Assembly (NCBI GenBank): GCA_033439295.1
Contig: JAVTLE010000013.1
Coordinates: 1,302,001-1,366,000 of the forward strand
Direction: 5' to 3'
Length of the DNA: 64,000 nucleotides
Source of the DNA: Deuterostichococcus epilithicus
Taxonomy: Eukaryota > Chlorophyta > Trebouxiophyceae > Prasiolales > Stichococcaceae
Part shown: positions 16,425-50,216 of the stretch, one piece after another
Layout: every line of letters starts with the position of its first letter
Position numbering within the stretch: the first letter of the stretch is position 1
The notes under the pieces: generated by a model
The model's input: the letters and a program-made list of their open reading frames with translations, nothing else
What the model was told of the DNA's origin: nothing
Databases searched by the model: none
Made by a program: the position numbers and the translations under genes

Positions 16425-19400
16425 ATGGCGTCGTCTAAGGCAATGGAGGCAGTGTTCCCGGAGGCTCAGGCCGTGCTGCGGGAGGTCGACCCGGAGGTAG
16501 CCTCAATCATCGAGGACGAGAAGGCCCGCCAGTGGTGAGCGTCCGATATGCAGACTCGATGGCGACGATGCCCCAAACACCTTTCGTGCGCTTCAGGTCG
16601 TCGGCGCATGTCCGCAAAACGGTGCTGGCCAATCGACCGGTAGACTGGCGACCAACCGTTGCCAGCGACCTTGCCACGTCCGTTGGCAGCAATTGCGCTT
16701 GCGTCGTCAGGCATGAGACAACCGCGCATGCAACCGCTCACACCTTGTACTGGTTGCTCATGCTTCCAAGGCGCTGCCACTCGCCAAACAATGTGTTGAA
16801 ATCGGGTTGACGCGCCAGCCCATCGTGCACTTGCTGCATCGTTGGCTGTGCAGCTGCCGCAACCGGTCTCGCGGAAAACTTCTAGCTTGTTTTGGTGGCT
16901 ACTCATCAACGCTTGTCAACGCCATGTGCTCACGCTTACGGCCGATGCTCACGGTGTTGCACTGCCGCCCCGCCGCAGGAAGGGCATCGAGCTCATTGCG
17001 TCTGAGAACTTCACTTCGGCGCCCGTTATGGAGGCGCTGGGCAGCTGCATGACCAACAAGTACAGCGAGGGGCAGCCGGGCGCACGCTACTATGGCGGCA
17101 ACGAGAACATTGACCGCATGGAGAACCTGTGCAAGGCTCGCGCGCTGCAGGCGTACCGCCTGGACCCCTCCGCCTGGGGCGTCAACGTGCAGCCCTACTC
17201 CGGCAGGTGCGACTCCATGCAGTGTGTCTGCAGGCCAGGGACCCTGGCCTCACATTGCATTGAGACGAACATTGCACACTTGCGGACACAAATGCAGAGA
17301 TGCACCTGCTGTCCTGTCCGGTATCTACTGAAAAGCCGCAATCTGCACGGACTCTGGGCCGACCTCGCTGCATCATGCACGGCACCCGTGACCCGTTGCT
17401 GTCTCTGCGCGCGCAGCCCGGCCAATTTTGCGGTGTACACGGCGCTGCTGCAGCCAAACGACAGGATCATGGGCCTGGACCTGCCATCGGGCGGCCACTT
17501 GACGCACGGCTACTACACGGCCGGGGGCAAGAAGATCTCTGCCACCTCCATCTTCTTCCAGTCGCTGCCCTACAAGCTTGACCCGGCGGTGCGCTTTCTG
17601 CCATATACCTGCCAAATCGCTGCCGCATTTGCAACGACAGGCAGACCGGCGGTGTGTCCACCCCTGGGCACTGCTGAGGCGTCTTTCTGCTCGTGAACAA
17701 ATACAGAAGCACACCAGTAGGCCTGTGGAGCCTCCAATTGCATCGCAGCTGCCCTCCTACATCCTACATGGTCCACATTGCATGGTCAATGCCGCAATTG
17801 CAATTTCCAACTTGAACATTGATCTGCAACACTGCCGTGAGACACTGTCGCCCGCGCAGACGGGGCTGGTCGACTACGAGAAGCTGGAGGAGAAGGCGCT
17901 GGACTTTCGGCCGCAGATGATCATCTGCGGCGGCAGCGCCTATCCGCGCGAGTGGGACTACGCCCGCCTGCGCTCCATCGCCGACAAGGTTGGCGCCTAC
18001 CTGCTCTCCGACATGGCGCACATCAGGTGCGGGACCCCCCCGGGACTGAAACTGGCTAGTGCGGTGGATGGCTGCGAGCGCGCAGTTCCTCTTTGTGGTT
18101 TGTGCACTTGGCCAAAGCTCATCTCGCTGATGCGCTGCGGCAAACGCCTGCACACGTCGCTGTGCACTTGCACACGTCAACAGTGTGAGGCTGGTTGGTG
18201 CTTCTCCTGGTGCTGCTCCTGCGCCTCGTGGCTGCCACGTCTGCTGACGTCGCTCGTGTTGCCGCGCCGCAGTGGCCTGGTGGCGGCGCAGGAGGCGGCG
18301 CAGCCCTTCGAGTACTGCGATGTGGTGTCCACCACCACCCACAAGTCGCTGCGCGGCCCTCGCGCCGGCATGATCTTCTTCCGCAGGGTGTGTTCCTGAC
18401 CCAGGCCCTTGGGTCAGCCGCGCTGACTGACATGGCCATTGGAGGGAGTGCATCAGCTGGCCGTGGCCGACACAGAGGCGCCTGCTTATCAAGTGCATCC
18501 AGGTTTCAGTTGACGTTTTGTGCAGCACACCCTCCCGATGTGCACACACTGGACTGGCGAGCGAGGTGGGGTCCTGCTGGCAACGCATGGCGATTGCTGT
18601 CTTGTACAGGGCCCCAAGACCAAGGCATACCTGCGCCGCGGTGAGAAGGAGGGCACTGAGTTCGACTACGAAGACAAGATCAACTTTGCCGTGTTCCCCT
18701 CCCTCCAGGTCCGCTTCTTGCTTTCCTCTTCCGCAACTCTGCTTGCCTGCATTCGGCAGCAGCTTGTTGCATTGCCGCTGCCAAGTGGCTGCGTGTTGTG
18801 CACTCCTCGAAAACAACATGCAAATCATTTGCACGACCAATCAACTTTGGTTGCAATGCTGCGCAGGGCGGGCCGCACAACCACCAGATCGCGGCGCTGG
18901 CCGTGGCGCTGAAGCACGCGCAGACGCCGCAGTTCAAGCAGTACCAGATCCAGGTGCTTCTCGCCTCTTGGACCCTGCACGCCATGCTGGTCCCATTGCG
19001 CCTGCCACCGGCAGCTGTACACTGCGGTGACACTGCACGCTGCCCGTGCTCACTGACGGCGGTGCCCGCTGACAGTGGCAGAGCCCCCCGTGCTCATGCC
19101 ATGAATGTGCGTGTTCTCGCAGACAAAGGCCAACGCGAGGGCGCTGGGCGACCGGCTGATGAAGCGTGGCTACAAGCTGGGCACTGACGGCACAGATAAC
19201 CACCTGGTGCTCTGGGACCTGCGCAAGGAGGTGTGCGCCACCTGAAGCAGGGTTGCTGAGCGGTGTGAGCCAATGACGGGGCTTCCTGTATGAGTCCAAG
19301 AGCTTCAGACACGACTCATGGTTGCGGCTTGTCTGCGGTAGCTCGCTGTGCAGGCGTCCGCACTGAAAACGCCTGTCGACCTGCTGCTGAGGCAGTGCCG

Positions 19401-38606: not shown

Positions 38607-39141
38607 AGTGAATGTCAGGTGTGGCCATCGCCATGAAGGCTTCTGAGGGTTTCCGTTCATGCTGCTCTGAGATGAGACTATGTTGATGAGCGCATCCTGA
38701 TATGCAACTGAGGCAACATCTGATTAGACCGGGCGATTTCGACCGTGTTTACAAGACCCCATCTAGGGAAGCAAACATTTCGCCGCAAGGAAGCAAAATC
38801 CGAAGAGTGCAATGTGCAACGAGACTTTTTCCGGAGACAAACTGTGAACGTATGCGCTTTCACCCTGCCCTGCAAGCTGCCTGGTCCAACCAGCTTTTCT
38901 GCCGCCACTGCAAAGATGGACCACGACAGCTGTTTGACGACAGCAAGCCGTGTCCCTGCACGGCAGCTCTCTGCTGCCGTTGCGCAAGCCAACGGTAGAA
39001 CAGTCGAACAACGATGTCATGAAGAAATCCCATACCGCAGCCGTGTCGTGAGTATGTGTGTGGCAATCCACGGGAACAAAGCCCGGTGCCAGCAAACAGT
39101 CGCTCAAAACTACCACCTGCGCTGCTCCTGTGCGTATTGCG
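38607..39141. other. Convergent intergenic region
   Basis: Between the Mak11 tail (+) and the small membrane protein (-). No conserved open frame seen; probably two 3' UTRs. Confidence 0.4.
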
Positions 39142-39510
39142 CTATTCCCATTGACGTCCTGACAACTTTCGATGCTCGGTAGCCTGCCGCTGGCGGGCAA
39201 CTGCTGCGGCGCCCGCTGCTGAGGGGCCAGCTCTTGATGGGCCGCCGCCTGCGACGCCGGCGGGTGCCTGCGTAAGCTCAACCAGCCCGTACGCCGCCTT
39301 GCCGTCCGCCGGATTGCTGGACTGCCCCAGCTTCCGCTGCTCGAACAACACCTTGCGCGCATGGCGCAGAGCGCTGGCCCCGAATGTTGCCGCCCAGATG
39401 GCTGCTATAACGCCAATTAGCACTGTCACCTTCCACGCGCGGCTGTCGCTGTCTGTGCCCGCAGCAGCGGCGTCATTGGCCTCTTCTTCCATGCTCAGCC
39501 GCCACTGCAA
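39142..39510 (-). CDS. Small single-pass membrane protein, hypothetical
   Basis: Uninterrupted frame of 122 codons, start at 39510 or more likely MEEEANDAAAAGTD at 39492. One strong transmembrane helix (VTVLIGVIAAIWAATFGASA) is followed by a basic segment RHARKVLFEQRKLG, then a Gly/Pro/Ala-rich tail ending SGRQWE. The positive-inside pattern suggests the tail faces the cytosol or stroma. No family recognised. Composition and a plausible topology support it, but there is no second line of evidence, and it could be the last exon of a longer gene. Confidence 0.5.
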   Translation of the reverse strand: MQWRLSMEEEANDAAAAGTDSDSRAWKVTVLIGVIAAIWAATFGASALRHARKVLFEQRKLGQSSNPADGKAAYGLVELTQAPAGVAGGGPSRAGPSAAGAAAVARQRQATEHRKLSGRQWE

Positions 39511-40349
39511 ACGCTGTGAGGCTGCACGGGTGCCAATGCGCCGCCCGCAGCGGCTGCTGGTCGCCAGTCAGTGCAGCATTGTTGTGCTGCACCGCCACCA
39601 CTGCTACCAATGTCTGTCCTGAAATAGCAGCATAAACGGAGATCAAACTGGCCATGCGTTGTGGTGCACATGTCTGCCATTGCACGGAGCATTGCAGTGG
39701 CGCAACGGCGTCCACATTGCCGCACCGCCAAGGCTTGGTGAGCAGCAAGTGTGCGATCGCAGCAGCGTGACGCGTCCTGCGAGCAGCAGTTGTCTTTCTA
39801 TGTTGCGGCAAAGTGTTTTAAAGAAGACAAAAGGGCTGTGCTGCGAGATCACATGGGAGATACCTACATTTTTAAACGAAATTAGGACCAGCAAGCTGTA
39901 CGCACCAGGGCTTGCGCTAGTCTGACTTGTCATCCGACGAGACTCCGCGGCTAGTCCAACATCACATTAGCAACTGCACCTCCAGTCAACCAGTCAGGAA
40001 ACTGAGCAGCGGCTGCATGCTGCGGGTGTCGAATCTACTCAGCCTTGAGATGCATTTCCGATAAGATGAATGCATGAAGCATGCAACAAACCATGATACA
40101 CTTGAGGATGTCAGGTCTGGTGTCAAATCGGGCAAAGAGCTAGGCTCCCGTACAGGTTTTGATTGGAGGTTTTCGGTTGCGAAAAGGGGCCTAAACGATT
40201 ACGACCCGAATCAGTGTAACAAATCACGCACAAAAAACCAAAGGGTTCTCGCTGCAGTTCACAAGCATCATGAGCGCCGCCGGGGGCGCAATCGCTTTCT
40301 CGTCAGCTCTGCCGCTGCAAGTGGCGCCGCTGACATTTGGCGGCGGGTT
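39511..40349. other. Intergenic region without recognised features
   Basis: Lower GC than the genes. Contains the promoter side of the small membrane protein and the 3' flank of the glycosylase gene. No repeat or open frame of note. Confidence 0.4.
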
Positions 40350-43300
40350 TCAAAAGCCGAGGACTTGGCCGAGGGTGACCACATGTGCGGCACCGGCTGC
40401 CGCTGCTGCCGTCTCACTGGCGGTCACAGGCGGCGTCGCTGCCGCCGCTACCGCCGTTGCTGCCATGGCGTCCAGCTCCGCACGCCGTGTCAGGCATGCC
40501 TTCTTCATGGCGCGATTGAGGCAGGTCTTGCACTGGCCGCACCGCTCCTCGTTGCGGATGATGCCGTACCTGCTGGTGCGCCGCCGCTTGACTCCCATCT
40601 CCACCCCGGTTTTGTCGCTGTGGCGCGGCGTCCGCGGCTCGGGCACTGGCCTGCCCAACGTGCTCGGCGCTGGCCGTGCCGACAGCGGCAACCAGGACAG
40701 CGTCGGCATGCCAGCGACGATGCCCACTGGCACCGCCGCCGCCGCCGGCAGCGGCGGCGGCTGCTGGCTAGAAGGCGAGGCTGCACCCCTCCCTGGGGCA
40801 GCGGCACCAGCGCCTGCGCCAATCGCGGCTGGCCGCTTCACCGGCAATGGGACCTGGGTGGCTGCCGCCGCTGCCGCCGCCGCCTTGGAAGGGCTGGCGC
40901 TGGTCTTGGCAAGCTGCTTCGGCGGTGCGCACAGCCAGCTCGGCAGGAGCGCTGGCATACCTGTGGCGTGACGCAGCTGCCGCTCAGCGCCTCGTGTGCT
41001 CTTCGTCAGCCGCCATCGCAGTGGGCGTCAGCGGGCGCATGCACACATTGTTGCTCGGGATCACAGCCGCGATGTCATTGTGAAAAGCAGTCAGGCACGC
41101 AGGAGTCCAAGTGTGTTGCAGCGGTGCGTGACGGCAGCGGTCACAGACAGCTGGCGAACGGCGACGGCTCTACTGGTCGGCAAGGCGACAGCTCGCACCT
41201 GTGGTGGGCTCATAGGCGCGCACGCACATGAGCTCGCTGGCAAACAGGCGTGCCACCTGCGCCTGGCCCATGCCGCGGCAGATGCCGCCGATGTGGCCGC
41301 CAAAGTGCACCACACGCCGCACGCCGCCCAGCAGCGACCGCGGCACCTGCACGTGATCAGAAGCGCGGGGTGCTCATGCTGTGCGCCGCTCGCAGTCGCG
41401 CCCTCGCTGTTCAGCGTCCCCCCTCAATGTGGTTCGGGCCTCTCCTGAGCCGAGGCAGAGTGGGGAGGTGGGCTTGCGTGACATACCTGGAGGGGGGCGG
41501 TGACCGTGTCAATGTCTAGAAACACCTCGTTGATCTGGAAGTAGGTACCTGAAGGTAAGGTAAGGCACTGAATTCAAGTACTAGGATTTAGTAGTCATGA
41601 AATAATGTTAATTTCAAACAATTACAATATGTGACGATGTCTAGAAACACCTGTTGATTTGGTTATGATAATACCTGCCAGCGGGAAGCTGCCGCGCATG
41701 GCCGCTCGCACCGGCACCAGCTGCGCCATGGACAGCGTTTCCGCCTCGCTGATGCCGCCGCCGCCGCCGGGCTGCAGCGCATCGGGCAGCCGCAGCAGCA
41801 GGCGGCGGCCGCCGACGCTGCCCTCCTGGCGATGCAGCGCCGGCAGCGCGGCCTCCAGCTCTGACGTCACTTCGTGAGCCTGCAACCGGCAGAACCGAGG
41901 CTTCACGACCTGTGTCACAGTCGCAGCAAGGCGTCGTCGTCAGAGGGAGTGCCACGAAACATTGCTGAGTATCGCCACTTTGCAGCAGATCTGCCAAGCC
42001 AGCCACCCTGCTGAGTGCACCGAGCAGCACGATTGCGTTCAAAGCCCACCTGCAGTACAATGTGCCGGGGCCCAAACGCAGCCGGCTTGCCGCCTTCAGC
42101 TGCCCGTGCACTGCCTGCATCGGCGCCTTCGGCTGCACCGGGCGTGACCACAGGCGCGGCGGCGGGCAGCGGTGGGGCAGTGGCGACATGTGGCGCCACT
42201 GCGCTGTATGCCTCGGACAGCATTGCAAAGGCCTGCAGACCACAAAAAATTGGCTTGGGGTGCGTGCTGCTGTGGAGGCAGTGCAGGCAGCGCCCGATCG
42301 GAGCACTGCATGCCATGCGTGGGGAGGCCACAGCTGTGCCGGGCATATGCAACACTGCAGATGATCAGCACTGCTGTGCCTCCGACGGCGACCGTTGCAT
42401 GCTGTGGGGGTGTAAGGGTTTAAGGGTTTAAGGGCGGCACCTTGCTGGCCTGCCCGTGTCGGCACTTGTCGGGATGAATGGCCACGCTCAGCTGCCGGTA
42501 GCTGCGCCGCAGCTCCGCTTCCAGGCACTTCAGCTCTGCGCCGTCACACGCCAGCAATGGCTGCTGCTGTGGGAGGTGCGGGGGCGGCTGGCAGGCTGCT
42601 TCTGCCAGCAGCGGTGGCCGCATGCCCAGCACCGCAAATGCCCTGTGCAAAGTGAGAGAATTTTCAGCGACAGCGCTCAGTGACTGCCGGCCCTGCGACC
42701 CAAGCCGAAGTGGTAGCGCTCTCGCTGCATCAATGAACTGCTCCACCTGCAATTGATGACCCTGGACCGATGTGTCTCATTCCGAGGGTGCAGTTTAACG
42801 AGATAGCGTACCAGGTCAGCTGCTCTGCTGGTGTCGGCGCTGCCGTCGCCGGCGCCGCAGCCAAGATGCGCTGCACCTCGGCCGACCGCGCCTCCTCTGA
42901 CAAAGCCGGCGCCCTATGCTGCACTTCCGCATCCAGCGCAGACGCCAGCGTCTGCTGCAGCGGCTCAGGCGCTGTAGCGGGGTCGGGCTCGGGCGCCTGT
43001 CGCGGCTGTGGCGCCGCCGTGCCGCCTACGCCCGCGCCGCCGCACCCTCCGGCAGCATCTGCAATATCTCCGGCATCAAATTGTGGCGGGCCCGGATGTG
43101 CCGCAGGCGCCGCATTGGGGGACGGCAGCCCTGTTGCGGCCGCCNGCGCCGCCCGGGCGCTGCCGCCGCTGCTGGCGGGGAGACCCTGCCGCCAGGCGGC
43201 GCACCCTTTGCCGCGTCCGGGGGTGCGCCCTCTGCGCAGAGAAGCATGCGCGGCTCCGCGCCGAAGCCCTGGCAAAGGCTGCCGGGAGGTGTCGACCCTG

Positions 43301-46300
43301 CAGCCACCGCTGTGGGCGGCCCAGCCTCAGTGGCTGGGGCGCTTGCTGTGGCCGCCGGCCGCCTGGACGCGGCAGCGACGCCACCAGCGAGCGGGTTCGC
43401 GGCGGCGCCCGCCAGCCGGCGGCCGCCCTGCTGCGCGTACTCGCACATGGACGACAGCGGACAGGCGTCGCACGCCGGCAGCGCCTTCGTGCAGAACACC
43501 TGTGCAGCGAGAGGGGACACTAACCTGGGTGCGACACCCTGCTTGGAGACGCAGAATCAGGCTCAAAACCTTGGTCGTGGCACATGGGCACCGTGCGCTT
43601 CCAGCTGGTCGCAATTAGGCAGATACGGCAGGTTTTGCTTATTCGTGATGGAGCTCTCATACCCCGCGGGGGGAGGGGGGGGCACCTTGCCGAGCGTGAT
43701 CATCTGGTAGTGCAGCTCGTGCAGCGCCTCCACGTCGAACTTCAGCAGCCTGCACGCAGCGCCACAGCCGCTCGGCCTGAAGGCGCAAGCAGGGCTCCAC
43801 CGGCTGTAACTTTCGCGCCTTGCAGGGCTGCTGCGGCTCTGAAAAGTCCTTCAGACAAAGTGTGCACTGCCACACCTTGCATATGAAAAGGTGATCACTT
43901 CAGGGGCTGCTATCCAAGTGGCATTAGCAATAAGTAGATCGAAAGTGCACCTGGAGTGCAGATACTTGTGCACCTCAGGCTCAGCCGCATAGTCGTCCAG
44001 CTCCTGTTGCAGCAGGATCAGCTTGCAGCCTCATTTGCTGCATGTGATCAGGAATTGACACAATGCACGCGTGGACATCACGGCAGCATCCAGACAGCGT
44101 CAGTCGCCTCGGCAGCGGGTGGGCAGGCAGACAAGACCCTCGCCTCGATGGCCTTGTCGCTGTCCAGCGGGATCCACCTGCACACATTCGCGCACTGCAG
44201 TGGGGCGCCCGTAAAGCCCTCGTGCACAGACGGCAGCTATGGAAGGATGGTCATGACGACAGGGCCTTCGCACTGCCTGGCCAGCTTGCTGCCAGGACCA
44301 AGACAGTGGAGACATCCCTGCATCTGGAACTGAGCAGACTGCATCCCAAAGCCTCCCCCCGGGGCCGGGGCCGCCAAGCAGCGGTGTGGCCCGTTGCAAC
44401 ACAGCGCCGCACCCGAGGCGCGAGCAGATGCGGCCGACATTGGTGTCCACGGGAAAGTCGCGCAGCCGCAGCGCCAGCAGCAGGATGCAGGCGACGCTCT
44501 TGCGCCCCAGGCCGTCGATGCCCATGAGGTAGGCTCTCGCCTCGTCCGCGCTCAGGTGCCGCAGCCGCTCCAGCGTCAGCGCCGCCGCCTGCACGCACAC
44601 CTCAGCTGTTCTGCCTCGTGGGCCAGGCCGTGCTGTCGAACTGTCAGGTCACTCTCACATCACACAACGTGCGGGAAAAGGAGGGCTGCGCGCCCGCACG
44701 AAACGCATGCGATTCTTGCACCCGCTGCACCACTTGGCAGCAGCAAGATGGGCAGCAAACTCCTGTCTTGCTGGTTTAATGAAGCTCGTCTCAATGGCTG
44801 ACCAGCCGAGGTTCACGGACCTACTCACCGCTGCAGGAGGGCTGCCTGTGGCAACCGATGCAGGCCGTGCTGGCGAGGTCAGCGCTGGCGCATCAGAACC
44901 CAGCTCGCAGTTGGAACCCCCGCAAGGGGCTGAGCAGCAGGCAGCAGCAGCGGCGTCGGCCTTCGATGCCAACGAGGGCGCGGGGGCATCTGGTGCCGTT
45001 GCCGTCTCCTTCGGTCGCGCATGCACCGGCGGAGCGCCGCCAGCTGCACTGAAGCTGGGCGGCGCCGGCGCAGCTTGGCAATCCCCTGACTGACGCGACG
45101 CGGAGTTTACTGGGGGCGTCGCCATGCGCGGCGACGCCAGCGTCTTTGCTTTAGCCGGCTCAGCAGCAGCCACCATTGTTGCGACCTCTGTCGCCGCCGC
45201 CGCCGTTGCGGCCTGTGCTGCCACCGCAGTGTGTGCTGCCATCGCTGCCGCGGCGTGCGGCGTCTGCACGCCTCCCTGCCACCAGAGTGATGGTTCCACA
45301 GCTGCTGCCGCTCCAGGATGTGGCTGCGGCTGTGGCTGCGGCTGCGACTGCGGCTGCGGCTGCGGCTGCGGCTGTGGCTGCGGCTGCACAGTGCTCAGTG
45401 CCATCTGTGACAGCGCCTGTGGTGGGTCTGGCTGCAGGGTCAGCTTCCTGGCAGTGTCCTTGAAGCTGCGCCACACGACGCCGGCCAGGCCGCTGCTGCT
45501 GGTGCTGCGGTCGCCATCGACAGCCGCATTTGCGGCGCTGCCACTGCGCTGCAGCCGCAGGCGCTGTGCCGCCTGCGCTGGCGTCACCGGCTCTACTGGG
45601 TCCGAGGGCTGCTGATCAGGCATTGACGCCATGCCCTGCCGTGTAGGAGTGGCCGGCAGAGTGCCGTCAGCCACCACCCGGCCGGCCGCCACTGCCCCGT
45701 CCAGCGCTGCTGCACCGTCTGCCGATGGGCCCATGGCGTCAGCTTCGCAGCACGGCGCGTCGGCATTCCAGAGCCCATCCTGCTTGTACAGGCGCTGCTT
45801 CTTGCACGGGGTTGCCGGCACGTCCGCCATGCTGGCTGCCGCCTGGGGGGTCTCCTGCATGACCTAGGCATTCGGCAGTTGAGACACAGGGCCAGCGAGA
45901 CACCCAAAGCTGCAGCTGGTCGCCTGCCATTCACAGTGCAGGAAGGTCAGAACCCAAAGGGCCAGGCTGATGCACGACGCAACATCAGAAACAACAGGCG
46001 TGCACGTTCAAGCTGGTGCATCAGCTGACCTGGTCCGCAGGCGTGTCGGGGGGGCGCGGCGCTGCCGAGCTGGCCGCGTTGTCTGCGCCTGCCGCCGGCT
46101 GCCGCGGGGCCGCCATGCCTGCTGCTTCCTCCGTCCGCCGCTTCTTCCGCGGCGCCCCCAGCTCGCCCACCTGCCAGACGGCCCGGGCCCTGCGCAGCTC
46201 GCCAGACCGCCGCCTCGTCGGCCTGCCGCTGCTGTCGGGCGGGCCGGCCTCGCGCTGCGCTGCCGAGCCCGCGGCGGGCAGCGCTGCTGATGTTGCGGGA

Positions 46301-46446
46301 GACACGCCAGGGTCCACCGCTGAGATGCCCCTGACGGCCGGCGACGCGGCGGCACCATCGTCAACGGGCTGGCCCTCAGCGGCCACCGTGGCAGCCAGCT
46401 GGGCAGCTGAGTGCGCCTCGAGAAGGATCCGGTTCAGCAGGGCCTG
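40350..46446 (-). CDS. DEMETER/ROS1-family 5-methylcytosine DNA glycosylase with J-domain
   Basis: Excises 5-methylcytosine for active DNA demethylation. From the N-terminus: disordered exons (46021-46446, basic APRKKRRTEE; 44731-45866, Ala-rich with Gln-Pro repeats). The HhH-GPD exon (about 44400-44640) has LSADEARAYLMGIDGLGRKS (catalytic Lys) and FPVDTNVGRICSRLG (catalytic Asp). PEVHKYLHS and ALHELHYQMITLGK follow, then the 4Fe-4S loop CTKALPACDACPLSSMC with exact C-x6-C-x2-C-x5-C spacing. A J-domain (YRQLSVAIHPDKC, then AFAMLSEAYSAV) is split over two exons at 42.44-42.60 and 42.23 kb. The DEMETER RRM-like fold (RGSFPLAG/TYFQINEVFLDID, RRVVHFGGHIGGICRG, MCVRAYEPTTG) is at 41.2-41.9 kb. A CXXC half-unit, CGQCKTCLNRAMKKAC, comes near the C-terminus. 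The start is unresolved; upstream blocks at 46.5-49.5 kb may belong. Confidence 0.9.
42413..42434. repeat. Telomere-like TTTAAGGG repeats
   Basis: Almost three units of TTTAAGGG, a one-base variant of the plant/green-algal telomere repeat TTTAGGG, right beside the donor site of the J-domain exon. Confidence 0.6.
45320..45388. repeat. GGCTGC/GGCTGT hexamer repeat coding for Gln-Pro
   Basis: About eleven hexamer units. On the minus strand, in the glycosylase reading frame, they encode a (Gln-Pro)n tract with occasional Ser or His. Such tracts vary in length between strains. Confidence 0.9.
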
Positions 46447-46459
46447 TAGATGGCAAGAA

Positions 46460-47804
46460 TCAGATGCTTGATGTCGACAGTTCTGACACGGAGATGTAGA
46501 AAAGATCGTATGTTTGAAAGCCAAATGTCAACTGGGTCGTGCCCTTGCGCACGTTCACATTCAGGCTGCGGTCTGCCACAGAGGCAATGCCCAGAAGGCA
46601 CTCATCACCGAGCTGCTTTGACATTGACCACAGCCAGAACAACAAGGACAGGAGATCGCCACCTGGATCCTGGTGGCCAGCATGAGGTGCATGCCACGGC
46701 ACTGGATTGCTTCTGCCACCTACGGTCCATCAAGACAGCACATTCAACGGTCCCGAGAGTGGCTTGCCGAAGCGGCGACACCAGGCCAAAGCCTGCTGGA
46801 GCCAGCCCTACAGCAGCAGCATCATATGCGGTCCACACCTCGCTGACTGGCGCCGTCCGAACAGCGTCCCAGTCGATGACGTCAGCATGCAGCTCAGCCT
46901 CGCAGCCTGCAATGGGTCACAGGCGACATCACCAGCCAGGTATCTGAACTCGCACAATCCATAGGAATTCAATTGAGTAGGTAGCATGATCTGCAGAAGG
47001 AACACGGCGACATTCTCAAGCACGTTCTCGTTCAACAACCTTTGCCGGGCTCTGGTGGCGGGCGGCGCTTGGCGGGGAAGCGTGCAGCCAATGTCATGAA
47101 GGCTTTGCTTGACGCGACGTCCGTCACGTTCTGGGTCTGCGACGCCAATCGACTGCTTGAACTCATCGGGCAAAAACCACTGGAGGACGGTCAAGATGAC
47201 TTGTCCAATGCTTGCTACCCTTGCTGCAACTTCAAACGAGGGTGATCCGCAAGCTGGATCAATGCAGATTGCGTTGCATCCATGCATCTTGGTTAGTGTT
47301 CCCTTATGATACGCTGCGACAACGGTGATAAGGATTGAAAAAGGCTGCACCAGAAAGGCGCCGACGACGGAGTCCAGCACGGAGCCTCCCCAAGGCGTCT
47401 GCCCGGGCTTGCGATCGCCGAGCACGCCCCTGCATGAGAAGAAGCTGAGTGAGGACTCAAATGAACCAGCTGACTTATATGAACCAGCTATGGTGCCAGT
47501 ATGGGGACCTCTGCGAGTCATACACAACGAGTCATGCACAACTTCGTAAGGTCGAACACATCGCATTTGAACACCTTGCTCGACGCGCCAGTCGGGTGAA
47601 ACAAATATGCGCCGTGGCAAGGCAACCGCTTGGCATGACAGCAGTCGGGATGAGGCAGTCGCACCGCACTGCACACTGGAACTCGCCGATGCGCTTGAGC
47701 CAGACGAACGACTCGTCGGCACCCCAGGTGGTCAAAGTCAGCTGGCCATCTTTGAGGATGCGCGCCTTCTTTGCCCCTGCGGCATGAGGGGCGACCTGGC
47801 CCAC
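46460..47804 (-). CDS. Unidentified coding-like block
   Basis: No family recognised. Minus-strand segments look protein-like: ARILKDGQLTLTTWGADESF near 47.75 kb, a long open frame 46808-47722 with ILTVLQWFLPDEFKQSIGV and RLLNENVLENVAVFLLQIML, and a piece ending at 46460 with DRSLNVNVRKGTTQLTFGFQ. Frames change between segments, as expected if introns intervene. Residue composition is balanced and hydrophobic, unlike the low-complexity proteins on both sides. It could be a separate small gene, intermediate exons of the glycosylase, or an old insertion. Confidence 0.3.
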
Positions 47805-47966
47805 GGGTGGAGAGCAGCAGGTAGAGCAGTACAGTAGGTTTCTGCCAGCATGCTATCACCACTGTGGCAGGCACGAGAGACGACCCACGCCAGGAAAGGG
47901 ACCGCTGAGCGGACTGCAGCCCTGAAAGCCTTGGCGATTGAGCTGGCAAGCCTTGCGACGTCTTGA

Positions 47967-49493
47967 TCAAGGTGTCCTCTCCGTGAATGCGACATGATGT
48001 GAAAAGGGCTTACATTTCCTCTTGGGCTTCACCTCCGCAGCAGGCACCGCCGCGGGCGGCACCGCCGACGGTGCCAACTGCACCAGGGCTTGCAAACCCT
48101 GGAAGGGGTCCGGCGCAGCAGGTGGAGATGTCCGCAGCGGCACGATGTCCAGCAGTGGGGGGCTGCGCACCAGACAGGAAAACGAGCTGACCTTTGAAGC
48201 TTCCGAGAGGCCTCCGCTGACACCAGTCTCCTTTAGGGCTGCCCTTCTGTCACTGGTTACGCTCTGGAGGGCGGTCACATCTGCTGCCCAATCAGGATCA
48301 CCTGGGCATGCTTCCCACCGACTAGTTGACAGCTTGAGCATGGCATGCGGGTTGACCTGCGATCTCAGAAGCAGGCTTTGAAAGGTGTGCACGCAGGGCT
48401 CCCACCTGAAGGTGGAGTCTGGCAGCAGAATCTCAGACCCGTGCCGGCCGAGCCACGGCGTCACTGGCGGGCTACCAGCGCCACCAGTGCCGCCGACGGG
48501 GCCGCCAGCGTCGCCGCCGCCCAGCAAGCTCGACTCTCCTAGCGTAGCCGGCACTGCCGCCCGCTGCTGCTGCTGCTGCCGCCAGCTGACCAGCCATGTA
48601 GATGGGCTTTGCTGGCTGGCCGCCTCAGGGAGCCAGGCCTCGGCGCTCCACTCCCTGGCTGACGGCGTCAGGCTGAGGTGTCTGGCGGCGGCCACCACGT
48701 CCGCCTGGCGCAGGGCATCGCCACCGGGGCTGCTGGATTGCCCTGACGAAGGCTCATTCCAGCCAGCGCCTGGTCTGCTGTGCAGTGACTCATCAGAGAC
48801 GCTGCTGGCACCGCCGGCAGGCCCGCAGCACTGGGACGGCCTGGCCGCCGCAGCAGCGGTCACCTGCTGCTGTTCCTGTTGCAACACCCGCTGGTAGACG
48901 GCGATCGTGCTGTGGTACAGGGCTGCCGGCTGCTCGGCATGTGGCTGGGTGTGACGCTCGGTTGCGGCCGGACTGATCTGACAGGCGCTCTGCTGAATTG
49001 AGCGCCCAGGCACTTTGTCTGCCGACTGCTGAGCGACCGCCCGCTGCGGTGAGTGCTGCAGGCGTAGCCGCGCTCCGTCCGCGGTGTGCTGGTATGGTCT
49101 GCAGGCCATGCCGCATCGGGGCGCCTCCGGCATTTCGCAGCGCGCCAGCTCGAGCAGGCTGACGGGCGCTGCGGCGGGATTTCGCGCCGTGGTGCAGGCG
49201 TACTGCGCTGGCGTCCGCCACTGCTCGCCCAGCTGCATGCTGATCGGCAGGCTGTGTGGCACAGCGATGCCGCCGGCGTAGGCGAAGCCCGCTGGCGGCA
49301 GGGCAAGGTTGCTGCTGTCGACTCCTGCGCAGACACCGCTGTCGGCGCTGCTGGCGCCGTGGTACCCGCTGCGCTGCTGCAGCAGCAGCTTGCCCAGCGT
49401 CTGTATCGTCATGTGCAGGCTGTCTGGCGGCGCCGCAAGTAGGTATCTTGGTCGCCATCGTACCACATCGATGTCGCTCCCGTCCACGGGCAT
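47967..49493 (-). CDS. Low-complexity protein, possible N-terminal exon of the glycosylase
   Basis: A 508-codon open frame from MPVDGSDIDVVRWRPRYLLA, rich in Ala, Ser, Gln and Pro, with no known domain. It includes QRVLQQEQQQV and several Gly-rich turns. Near the 3' end it has a basic AT-hook-like EVKPKRKCK, and a GT donor lies within that codon string (AAAT|GTAAGC). DEMETER-family proteins have long disordered N-termini with Lys-rich motifs, and the first mapped glycosylase exon (46446) starts with an acceptor, so a more upstream exon is required. The phase of this donor does not fit that acceptor directly, so at least one exon would have to lie between. It may be an independent gene. Confidence 0.55.
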   Translation of the reverse strand: MPVDGSDIDVVRWRPRYLLAAPPDSLHMTIQTLGKLLLQQRSGYHGASSADSGVCAGVDSSNLALPPAGFAYAGGIAVPHSLPISMQLGEQWRTPAQYACTTARNPAAAPVSLLELARCEMPEAPRCGMACRPYQHTADGARLRLQHSPQRAVAQQSADKVPGRSIQQSACQISPAATERHTQPHAEQPAALYHSTIAVYQRVLQQEQQQVTAAAAARPSQCCGPAGGASSVSDESLHSRPGAGWNEPSSGQSSSPGGDALRQADVVAAARHLSLTPSAREWSAEAWLPEAASQQSPSTWLVSWRQQQQQRAAVPATLGESSLLGGGDAGGPVGGTGGAGSPPVTPWLGRHGSEILLPDSTFRWEPCVHTFQSLLLRSQVNPHAMLKLSTSRWEACPGDPDWAADVTALQSVTSDRRAALKETGVSGGLSEASKVSSFSCLVRSPPLLDIVPLRTSPPAAPDPFQGLQALVQLAPSAVPPAAVPAAEVKPKRKCKPFSHHVAFTERTP

Positions 49494-50216
49494 CTGTCAC
49501 AGAACACAGATGACCGTCACGCCCGCGTCTGCGCCATGGCAGGTACACTCCGTCACCGAACCGTACGTTTGTCGGCATGCACGGAAAACTGTGCATGCAT
49601 CATGATTTTGCGACGGAGTGCGCGAGCCTGATGTGAGGACGTCAACGCATCCAATGTAGCGATCAGAAACAATGCCGGGCAGTTTTGCTGCCGAGAATCC
49701 TTAGTGGACACGCGCCTTCCGTGCGTCGGATACGAGCTGTTGTGGAATACCGCTGCTTCTCAAGTTCCCCCGTGTCACGCAGAATCACTATAGAATTATC
49801 CAGACATGACCTGCGTCTCGTGAGCTGCCAGATCGCATAGCGGTCGTTCAACGCTACACGGGCGTCACGGAGTCAACAGAAAAAATTCAGCGCAATCACG
49901 TTGCAACTGATCCTGCGGGCCTATCAACTTATCAAATATGATACTGAGTCGCGATACCAAGCGGCGTGCACCAGCAGACGGGCACGCGGTTCCGGAACGC
50001 ACACCGCGATGACAGGGGTGTGCATGTGTGCAATCGAAAGGGGTGCAAGATGACGGGATCAGCCAGCAAGTGAATCAGGTCGGACGCCAACGGAAGATAG
50101 ACAAAGCGTGAATCATGAGGTTCACATTGTTTAGGATATTCAAGTGAAATCGGCCGCAGCTGGCCATAGACAGCACCGGCAAGCGCACATCGCTCCCTCG
50201 TCATCACCGGGCAGCC
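49494..50216. promoter_or_regulatory. Divergent intergenic region upstream of Y3IP1
   Basis: 723 bases between diverging starts. It should contain both promoters. No recognised element. Confidence 0.45.

What the first reader, a model, noticed from the sequence alone, without database searches (positions are those of the whole stretch)
42050..42752. J-domain embedded in a DEMETER-family DNA demethylase
Between the iron-sulfur loop (about 43480) and the RRM-like fold (about 41700) the protein has ELRRSYRQLSVAIHPDKC, then, after an intron at 42233-42440, AFAMLSEAYSAV. This is J-domain helix II, an intact HPD loop (codons 42469-42477) and helix III. J-domains stimulate Hsp70 ATPase, so the enzyme may bring a chaperone to sites of 5-methylcytosine excision. 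Land-plant DEMETER/ROS1 have no J-domain. I do not know whether algal relatives with this architecture have been described.
Basis: partly seen in the sequence, partly recalled or inferred. Interest (0 to 1): 0.82.

Follow-up and report, generated by a model that had tools for sequence, protein, structure and literature searches.

The report
J-domain inside an algal DNA demethylase
A gene, apparently from a green alga, joins an enzyme that cuts methylated cytosine out of DNA to a J-domain, the docking part that switches on Hsp70 chaperones, so one protein may bring a chaperone motor to the places where DNA methylation is erased.

Summary
The minus strand (about 49493-40350) carries a DEMETER/ROS1-family gene, modelled here with 19 exons: a split HhH-GPD glycosylase with the catalytic Lys and Asp, a 4-Cys iron-sulfur loop, and RRM_DME (90 bits; Pfam cutoff 34.6). 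Between the iron-sulfur loop and RRM_DME lies a J-domain made by joining two exons. Joined, they score 33.0 bits against Pfam DnaJ (cutoff 27.8); the HPD exon alone scores 20.8 and the second exon alone gives no DnaJ hit. HPD, helix II and helix III are present; helix I is only suggested.

In the model all 18 introns are GT-AG, but exons were chosen by hand to fit phase and homology. The join from the iron-sulfur exon to the J exon has several possible forms, the preferred one needing a frame change near an undetermined base (43145). No transcripts were available.

Hsp70 recruitment to demethylation sites is plausible but inferred. Arabidopsis recruits separate J-proteins to methylated DNA; here the J-domain would be in cis with the eraser. 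Ten library searches showed no such fusion, but two key papers were not held. New variant of a known kind; conservation in other algae untested.

The parts
48014..49493 (-). exon 1, N-terminal low-complexity region with ATG start (provisional)
   Evidence: 493 open codons, GT donor; no Pfam match at E up to 0.1 for a 560-residue piece that starts here
47665..47776 (-). exon 2 (provisional)
   Evidence: GT-AG and phase-consistent
47351..47429 (-). exon 3, first part of HhH-GPD (GDRKPGQTPWGGSVLDSVVGAFL)
   Evidence: exons 3-4 aligned to ROS1 construct 7yhq 155-204
47040..47136 (-). exon 4 (TQNVTDVASSKAFMTLAARFP)
   Evidence: aligned to ROS1; phase-consistent
46839..46906 (-). exon 5 (DVIDWDAVRTAPVSE)
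   Evidence: aligned to ROS1 DTVDWKAIRAADVKE
46663..46719 (-). exon 6 (VAEAIQCRGMHLMLATRIQ)
   Evidence: aligned to ROS1 VAETIKSRGMNHKLAERIQ
46030..46443 (-). exon 7, end of a glycosylase helix and start of a low-complexity insert
   Evidence: ALLNRILLEAH falls in the ROS1 alignment; GT-AG, phase 0
44829..45863 (-). exon 8, low-complexity insert inside the glycosylase fold
   Evidence: 345 codons open, GT-AG, phase 0
44413..44588 (-). exon 9, GLGRKS hairpin (Lys codon 44501-44499) and FPVDTN (Asp codon 44447-44445)
   Evidence: aligned to ROS1; codons checked; Pfam HhH-GPD 30.2 bits with the insert removed, cutoff 26.2
44138..44177 (-). exon 10
   Evidence: WIPLDSDKAIEAR aligns with ROS1; GT-AG
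43951..44021 (-). exon 11
   Evidence: phase-consistent GT-AG; KYL..R aligned to ROS1
43686..43749 (-). exon 12 (LLKFDVEALHELHYQMITLGK)
   Evidence: aligned to ROS1 LCKLDQKTLYELHYQMITFGK
42812..43499 (-). exon 13: iron-sulfur loop C-x6-C-x2-C-x5-C (Cys codons start at 43493, 43472, 43463, 43445), then linker; undetermined base at 43145; 3-prime end uncertain
   Evidence: the frame must change between the iron-sulfur loop and 42812 in this model
42441..42642 (-). exon 14: possible J helix I (AFAVLGM 42641-42621), long loop, helix II, HPD (42476-42468); 5-prime end uncertain
   Evidence: Pfam DnaJ 33.0 bits when joined to exon 15; in-frame codon score 0.60 bits per codon
42050..42232 (-). exon 15: J helix III (AFAMLSEAYSAV, 42232-42197) and linker
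   Evidence: GT-AG, phase 0; codons checked
41675..41879 (-). exon 16: start of RRM_DME (PVRAAMRGSFPLA)
   Evidence: Pfam RRM_DME 90.3 bits, cutoff 34.6
41487..41548 (-). exon 17: RRM_DME
   Evidence: GTYFQINEVF against ROS1 GTYFQVNEVF
41199..41346 (-). exon 18: RRM_DME
40350..40960 (-). exon 19: end of RRM_DME, C-terminal tail with a half-CXXC-like motif (40571-40482), stop codon
   Evidence: zf-CXXC 10.8 bits, below cutoff 26.5, profile positions 17-47 of 48; coordinates

Best explanation
It is a DEMETER/ROS1-family 5-methylcytosine DNA glycosylase in which a J-domain has been placed in the linker between the iron-sulfur loop and RRM_DME. Shown by sequence: the glycosylase core with its catalytic residues, the iron-sulfur cysteines, RRM_DME, and a J-domain core with intact HPD built across an intron in matching phase. 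Inferred: one transcript, an active glycosylase, and a J-domain that docks on nuclear Hsp70 and stimulates its ATPase. Most likely role, inferred: the glycosylase recruits Hsp70 in cis to sites of cytosine demethylation, where the chaperone either loosens protein-DNA contacts around the site or pulls the slowly released enzyme off its product so that repair can proceed.
For: Pfam: RRM_DME 90.3 bits and DnaJ 29-33 bits, both above curated cutoffs; the DnaJ score passes only when the two exons are joined. ROS1 constructs (7yhq/7yho) are the best solved relatives of both halves; the glycosylase part, with the insert removed, is 49% identical to ROS1 (191 alignment columns). A model with 18 GT-AG introns runs open from an ATG to the stop, apart from the frame change in exon 13. 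The J exons show in-frame codon preference trained on 16 other exons (0.60 and 0.39 bits per codon), above their other two frames and above the intron between them (0.00 at best). Context: Arabidopsis recruits J-proteins to methylated DNA, namely SILENZIO through MBD5/6 and ACD15/21 (PMC12632923, passages) and DNAJ1/DNAJ2 through SUVH1/SUVH3 (PMC10660380, passages).
Against: No RNA evidence. The splice sites were picked by hand to fit phase and ROS1 homology, so phase continuity is partly by construction. The join from the iron-sulfur exon to the J exon is ambiguous: the preferred form needs a frame change near the undetermined base 43145 or a 74-base intron at 43045-42972, shorter than the 18 modelled introns (116-240); other donor/acceptor pairs also fit. 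Helix I is not recognised by Pfam: the match starts at profile position 12-14 even with the loop shortened. A single-exon AlphaFold model was poor (mean pLDDT 58.5). No relative was confirmed in 4 collection scans, though those collections are viral and prokaryotic. Nothing here tests Hsp70 binding or 5mC excision.
Confidence: 0.58

Rival explanations
1. The J-domain is present in the protein but serves the enzyme itself: it keeps a very large, disordered, iron-sulfur-containing protein folded or stable, and does not act on chromatin.
For: The protein carries long low-complexity stretches (exons 1, 7, 8, 13, 19; sequences) and an iron-sulfur loop. J-proteins of the HscB/JAC1 type serve iron-sulfur delivery (recalled); HscB and JAC1 appear only as weak matches (E 0.12; 0.22-0.24).
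Against: HscB and JAC1 are not the best matches; general Hsp40 J-domains score better. Plant ROS1/DME work without a J-domain in cis (recalled).
Confidence: 0.25
2. The J exons belong to a separate or nested gene, or to an alternative transcript, and are not part of the main demethylase protein.
For: The upstream join is ambiguous, splice sites were chosen by hand, and there are no RNA data.
Against: Same strand, lying between the iron-sulfur and RRM_DME exons. The 43029-42812 stretch is open in the J frame (0.63 bits per codon, 72 codons), and its donor at 42811 has the phase that the acceptor at 42643 needs. Exons 14 to 19 run in one open frame to the stop.
Confidence: 0.1
3. The J-domain is a decayed relic without Hsp70 function.
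For: Helix I not recognised, with about 35 residues between AFAVLGM and ELRRSYR; DnaJ score only moderately above cutoff.
Against: HPD, the YR..L stretch of helix II and the F..L..EAY pattern of helix III are kept, and codon preference is retained.
Confidence: 0.12

Closest known systems
Arabidopsis ROS1 / DEMETER family 5-methylcytosine DNA glycosylases
   Same: Split HhH-GPD with GLGxKS and FPVDTN, the C-x6-C-x2-C-x5-C iron-sulfur loop and RRM_DME, in the same order.
   Different: The ROS1 constructs matched here only in the RRM_DME part of the C-terminal half, not in the J segment (constructs of 757 residues, not full ROS1). This protein has a J-domain before RRM_DME, about 470 residues inserted inside the glycosylase fold (exons 7-8), and a C-terminal tail with a half-CXXC-like motif after RRM_DME.
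J-domain proteins tied to plant DNA methylation: SILENZIO with MBD5/6-ACD15/21, and DNAJ1/DNAJ2 with SUVH1/SUVH3
   Same: A J-domain protein is brought to methylated chromatin (PMC12632923; PMC10660380; passages only).
   Different: There the J-domain is a separate subunit attached to a reader of methylation; here it appears to be in the same polypeptide as the eraser.
RabJ (2ys8), DNAJB12 (2ctp), human HSP40 (1hdj) and other J-domains
   Same: Helix II-HPD-helix III core.
   Different: Here helix I is only suggested and about 35 residues separate it from ELRRSYR; similarity is modest (best E 0.0014).

Membership tests
DEMETER/ROS1 5mC DNA glycosylase family | HhH-GPD glycosylase core with catalytic Lys (GLGxKS) and Asp (FPVDTN) | tested here: met
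   49% identity to ROS1 with the insert removed; Pfam HhH-GPD 30.2 bits with the insert removed, but 22.9 bits, below the 26.2 cutoff, with the insert left in. That these residues are catalytic is recalled
DEMETER/ROS1 5mC DNA glycosylase family | Four-cysteine iron-sulfur loop C-x6-C-x2-C-x5-C | tested here: met
   FCTKALPACDACPLSSMC aligned to ROS1 FCTKSKPNCNACPMKGEC; the Pfam EndIII_4Fe-2S model gave only 13.3 bits, cutoff 20.5
DEMETER/ROS1 5mC DNA glycosylase family | RRM_DME domain | tested here: met
   90.3 bits in the C-terminal part and 95 bits alone, cutoff 34.6
DEMETER/ROS1 5mC DNA glycosylase family | Permuted CXXC zinc finger in the C-terminal part (feature taken from PMC9266487, passages) | tested here: inconclusive
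   No permuted-CXXC model among the Pfam hits; a half-CXXC-like motif after RRM_DME scores 10.8 bits against zf-CXXC, cutoff 26.5
DEMETER/ROS1 5mC DNA glycosylase family | Excision of 5-methylcytosine | not testable with these tools
   needs enzyme assay
J-domain (DnaJ/Hsp40) proteins | DnaJ profile above the curated cutoff | tested here: met
   33.0 bits for the joined exons, 29.0 in context, cutoff 27.8
J-domain (DnaJ/Hsp40) proteins | HPD motif between helices II and III | tested here: met
   HPD codons at 42476-42468, inside the Pfam match
J-domain (DnaJ/Hsp40) proteins | Helix I and the complete four-helix fold | tested here: inconclusive
   AFAVLGM resembles helix I by eye, but the Pfam match starts at profile position 12-14 even with the loop shortened; single-exon model poor
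J-domain (DnaJ/Hsp40) proteins | Stimulation of Hsp70 ATPase | not testable with these tools
   needs biochemical assay

The most novel reading that the evidence does not exclude
A lineage of algae couples its 5-methylcytosine eraser directly to the Hsp70 motor: the J-domain in the glycosylase recruits Hsp70 to each site of excision and uses ATP hydrolysis to clear proteins, or the enzyme itself, from the product. This would be a cis version of the J-protein and small-heat-shock-protein modules that Arabidopsis attaches in trans to methylated DNA.
Probability: 0.3. Interest if true: 0.72.

Novelty: new variant of a known kind. Interest (0 to 1): 0.52.

Why it matters
Chaperone-type proteins turn up in plant DNA methylation control (SILENZIO, DNAJ1/2, the ACD proteins IDM2/IDM3), and to my knowledge their biochemical job is not settled. 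A demethylase that carries its own J-domain would make the question directly testable in one purified protein: does Hsp70 change turnover of a 5mC glycosylase, in an HPD-dependent way?

Tried and rejected
Rejected: a chance match to HPD. The joined exons pass the Pfam cutoff, and the loose motif occurs 8 times in 200 shuffled windows.

Phase-0 donors that would fit it exist (43379, 43307 and 43184 in the iron-sulfur frame; 43029, 42924 and 42876 in the J frame), but 42746-42643 scores -0.06 bits per codon in the J frame, no better than intron.

Forms of the join to exon 14 at 42642. (a) Frame change at the undetermined base 43145, donor at 42811 (preferred). (b) No frame change, donor at 43029 straight to 42642; this leaves the coding-like stretch 43029-42812 as intron although it scores 0.63 bits per codon in the J frame with no stop. 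(c) A 74-base intron at 43045-42972 that changes the frame without any sequence error. Forms a-c enter exon 14 in the same phase.

Led nowhere: collection scans for relatives, 0 confirmed of 58 and 79 pattern matches in viral contigs and 0 of 70 and 83 in prokaryote genomes. The single-exon structure prediction was poor and was not used for a fold search. A DNA pattern for further CXXC halves was badly built and found nothing. Tandem repeats in 39000-50000 gave 2 rows, neither in the J exons. Whole-genome search was not possible. The metagenome collection had a cap of zero and was not scanned.

Literature: in the listings of ten searches (some listings were capped, for example 20 of 490) I saw no title or abstract start that describes a DEMETER-family protein with a J-domain. 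Passages, not whole texts, of 11 papers were seen. Not held: Iyer et al. 2011 on eukaryotic DNA methylation systems, Zhang et al. 2019 on the DEMETER catalytic core, and Hong et al. 2014 on the ROS1 C-terminal domain. The first two are the likeliest places for an earlier mention; I have an unverified recollection that algal DEMETER homologues with extra domains are discussed there.

Full report
What was checked. The finding points to the minus strand at 42752-42050. I read the sequence, built the gene around it, tested it against Pfam and solved structures, and rechecked coordinates and splice options.

The gene. Nineteen exons can be placed between 49493 and 40350, with 18 GT-AG introns of 116-240 bases. 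I chose the splice sites by hand, guided by phase and by homology to ROS1, so the continuous phase is partly built in; exons 1 and 2 are provisional. The frame changes within exon 13. Exons 3-6, the start of 7, 9-12 and the start of 13 align with ROS1 over two stretches (7yhq, 213 bits; the long insert of exons 7-8 had been removed from that query). Identity to ROS1 in the larger stretch is 49%. The Lys (codon 44501-44499) and Asp (44447-44445) that I recall as catalytic, and the four iron-sulfur cysteines, are present. Of the two ROS1 constructs one has Asp and the other Asn at this Asp position, consistent with an inactivated catalytic residue. Exons 16-19 encode RRM_DME (90.3 bits, cutoff 34.6), matched by ROS1 at 62.7 bits.

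The J-domain. Exon 14 (42642-42441) and exon 15 (42232-42050) join in phase 0 and give ELRRSYRQLSVAIHPDKCRHGQASK+AFAMLSEAYSAV. The joined segment scores 33.0 bits against DnaJ (E 6.4e-8, cutoff 27.8), and 29.0 bits inside the 580-residue C-terminal part. The HPD exon alone scores 20.8 bits, below cutoff, and exon 15 alone has no DnaJ match. That the score passes only after splicing is good evidence that the two exons belong together. The nearest solved J-domains are RabJ, DNAJB12 and other Hsp40s, all with modest E-values (best 0.0014). NCBIfam gives general DnaJ models at up to 21.2 bits, far below their full-length cutoffs.

Weak points of the J-domain. Pfam covers profile positions 14-52 of 63. 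Exon 14 begins with AFAVLGM, which resembles the end of a J helix I, but about 35 residues separate it from ELRRSYR, and the match does not reach helix I even when the loop is shortened (starts at position 12). A model of exon 14 alone was poor (mean pLDDT 58.5).

Is it one protein? Codon preference trained on 16 other exons gives 0.60 (exon 14) and 0.39 (exon 15) bits per codon in the model frame, better than the other two frames of each (best rivals 0.29 and 0.26); the intron between them gives 0.00 at best. Upstream, 43029-42812 is open and coding-like in the frame that leads into exon 14 (0.63 bits per codon, 72 codons). If that stretch is exon, the iron-sulfur frame must change before it: either the undetermined base 43145 hides an error of one base, or a 74-base intron lies at 43045-42972. 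A reading with no frame change (donor at 43029 to acceptor 42643) is possible but leaves that coding signal unexplained, and an earlier J-exon start at 42746 has fitting donors but no coding preference in 42746-42643. Every one of these forms joins the iron-sulfur exon to the J exon in an open frame; transcripts would decide, and none were available.

Organism. No genome is held. G+C is about 62%. A neighbouring gene at about 16800-18396 encodes serine hydroxymethyltransferase (378.6 bits), closest to entries 6smr (SHMT 4) and 6uxh (424.6 and 408.1 bits), ahead of cytosolic entries such as 1bj4 at 341.2 bits (best 60 of 70 shown). From memory these are Arabidopsis, soybean and human. This fits a green alga but does not prove it.

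How it may work. Established knowledge: DEMETER-family enzymes excise 5mC, and J-domains with HPD stimulate Hsp70 ATPase. Removal of the ROS1 C-terminal part, which includes the permuted CXXC and RRM_DME, inactivates it and abolishes H3 interaction (PMC9266487, passages). In Arabidopsis, J-proteins are recruited to methylated DNA: SILENZIO by MBD5/6 with ACD15/21, while MBD7 with the ACD proteins IDM3/IDM2 is proposed to promote demethylase activity (PMC12632923, passages); DNAJ1/DNAJ2 are recruited by SUVH1/SUVH3 (PMC10660380, passages). The inference is that this organism carries such a J-domain in the eraser itself and recruits Hsp70 in cis, to open chromatin around the site or to release a product-bound enzyme. 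I recall that ROS1 turns over slowly because it stays on its product; this was not checked. A role in the folding or iron-sulfur loading of this large protein is the main rival.

Novelty. The listings of ten searches of the open library showed no DEMETER-family protein with a J-domain (some listings capped). A survey of 77 species reports DME in all five algae examined, with low-complexity regions and partial domains in C. reinhardtii; the word DnaJ does not occur in its main text (PMC6624907, passages). The two works most likely to describe algal DEMETER architectures were not held. No eukaryotic collection could be searched, so whether the fusion is shared by other algae is open. I therefore rate it a new variant of a known kind, with a real chance that it has already been noted.

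Noticed in passing
window 41674-41549 (intron 16) and 41548-41506 (exon 17): The first 44 bases of intron 16 are an imperfect copy of the start of the next exon (36 identities in 41 aligned bases, 5 gap positions; 33 of 40 against 18-27 of 40 for the other 17 introns). The intron is AT-rich (32% G+C, the others 49-66%). This looks like an intron gained through a duplication carrying an AG|GT site.
   Followed up: partly
window 46443-44829 (exons 7-8): About 470 low-complexity residues are inserted inside the glycosylase fold, after ALLNRILLEAH, where ROS1 has only a short loop; the HhH-GPD score passes the Pfam cutoff only when they are removed.
   Followed up: partly
window 40571-40482 (exon 19): RYGIIRNEERCGQCKTCLNRAMKKACLTRR resembles the second half of a CXXC zinc finger (10.8 bits, below cutoff) and lies after RRM_DME, near the C-terminal end.
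   Followed up: partly
window 43145: A single undetermined base lies where the reading frame appears to change inside exon 13; possible assembly error, though a 74-base intron at 43045-42972 is an alternative.
   Followed up: partly
window about 16800-18396, plus strand: Exons of a serine hydroxymethyltransferase gene (Pfam SHMT 378.6 bits for joined pieces), closest to entries that I recall as plant enzymes.
   Followed up: partly
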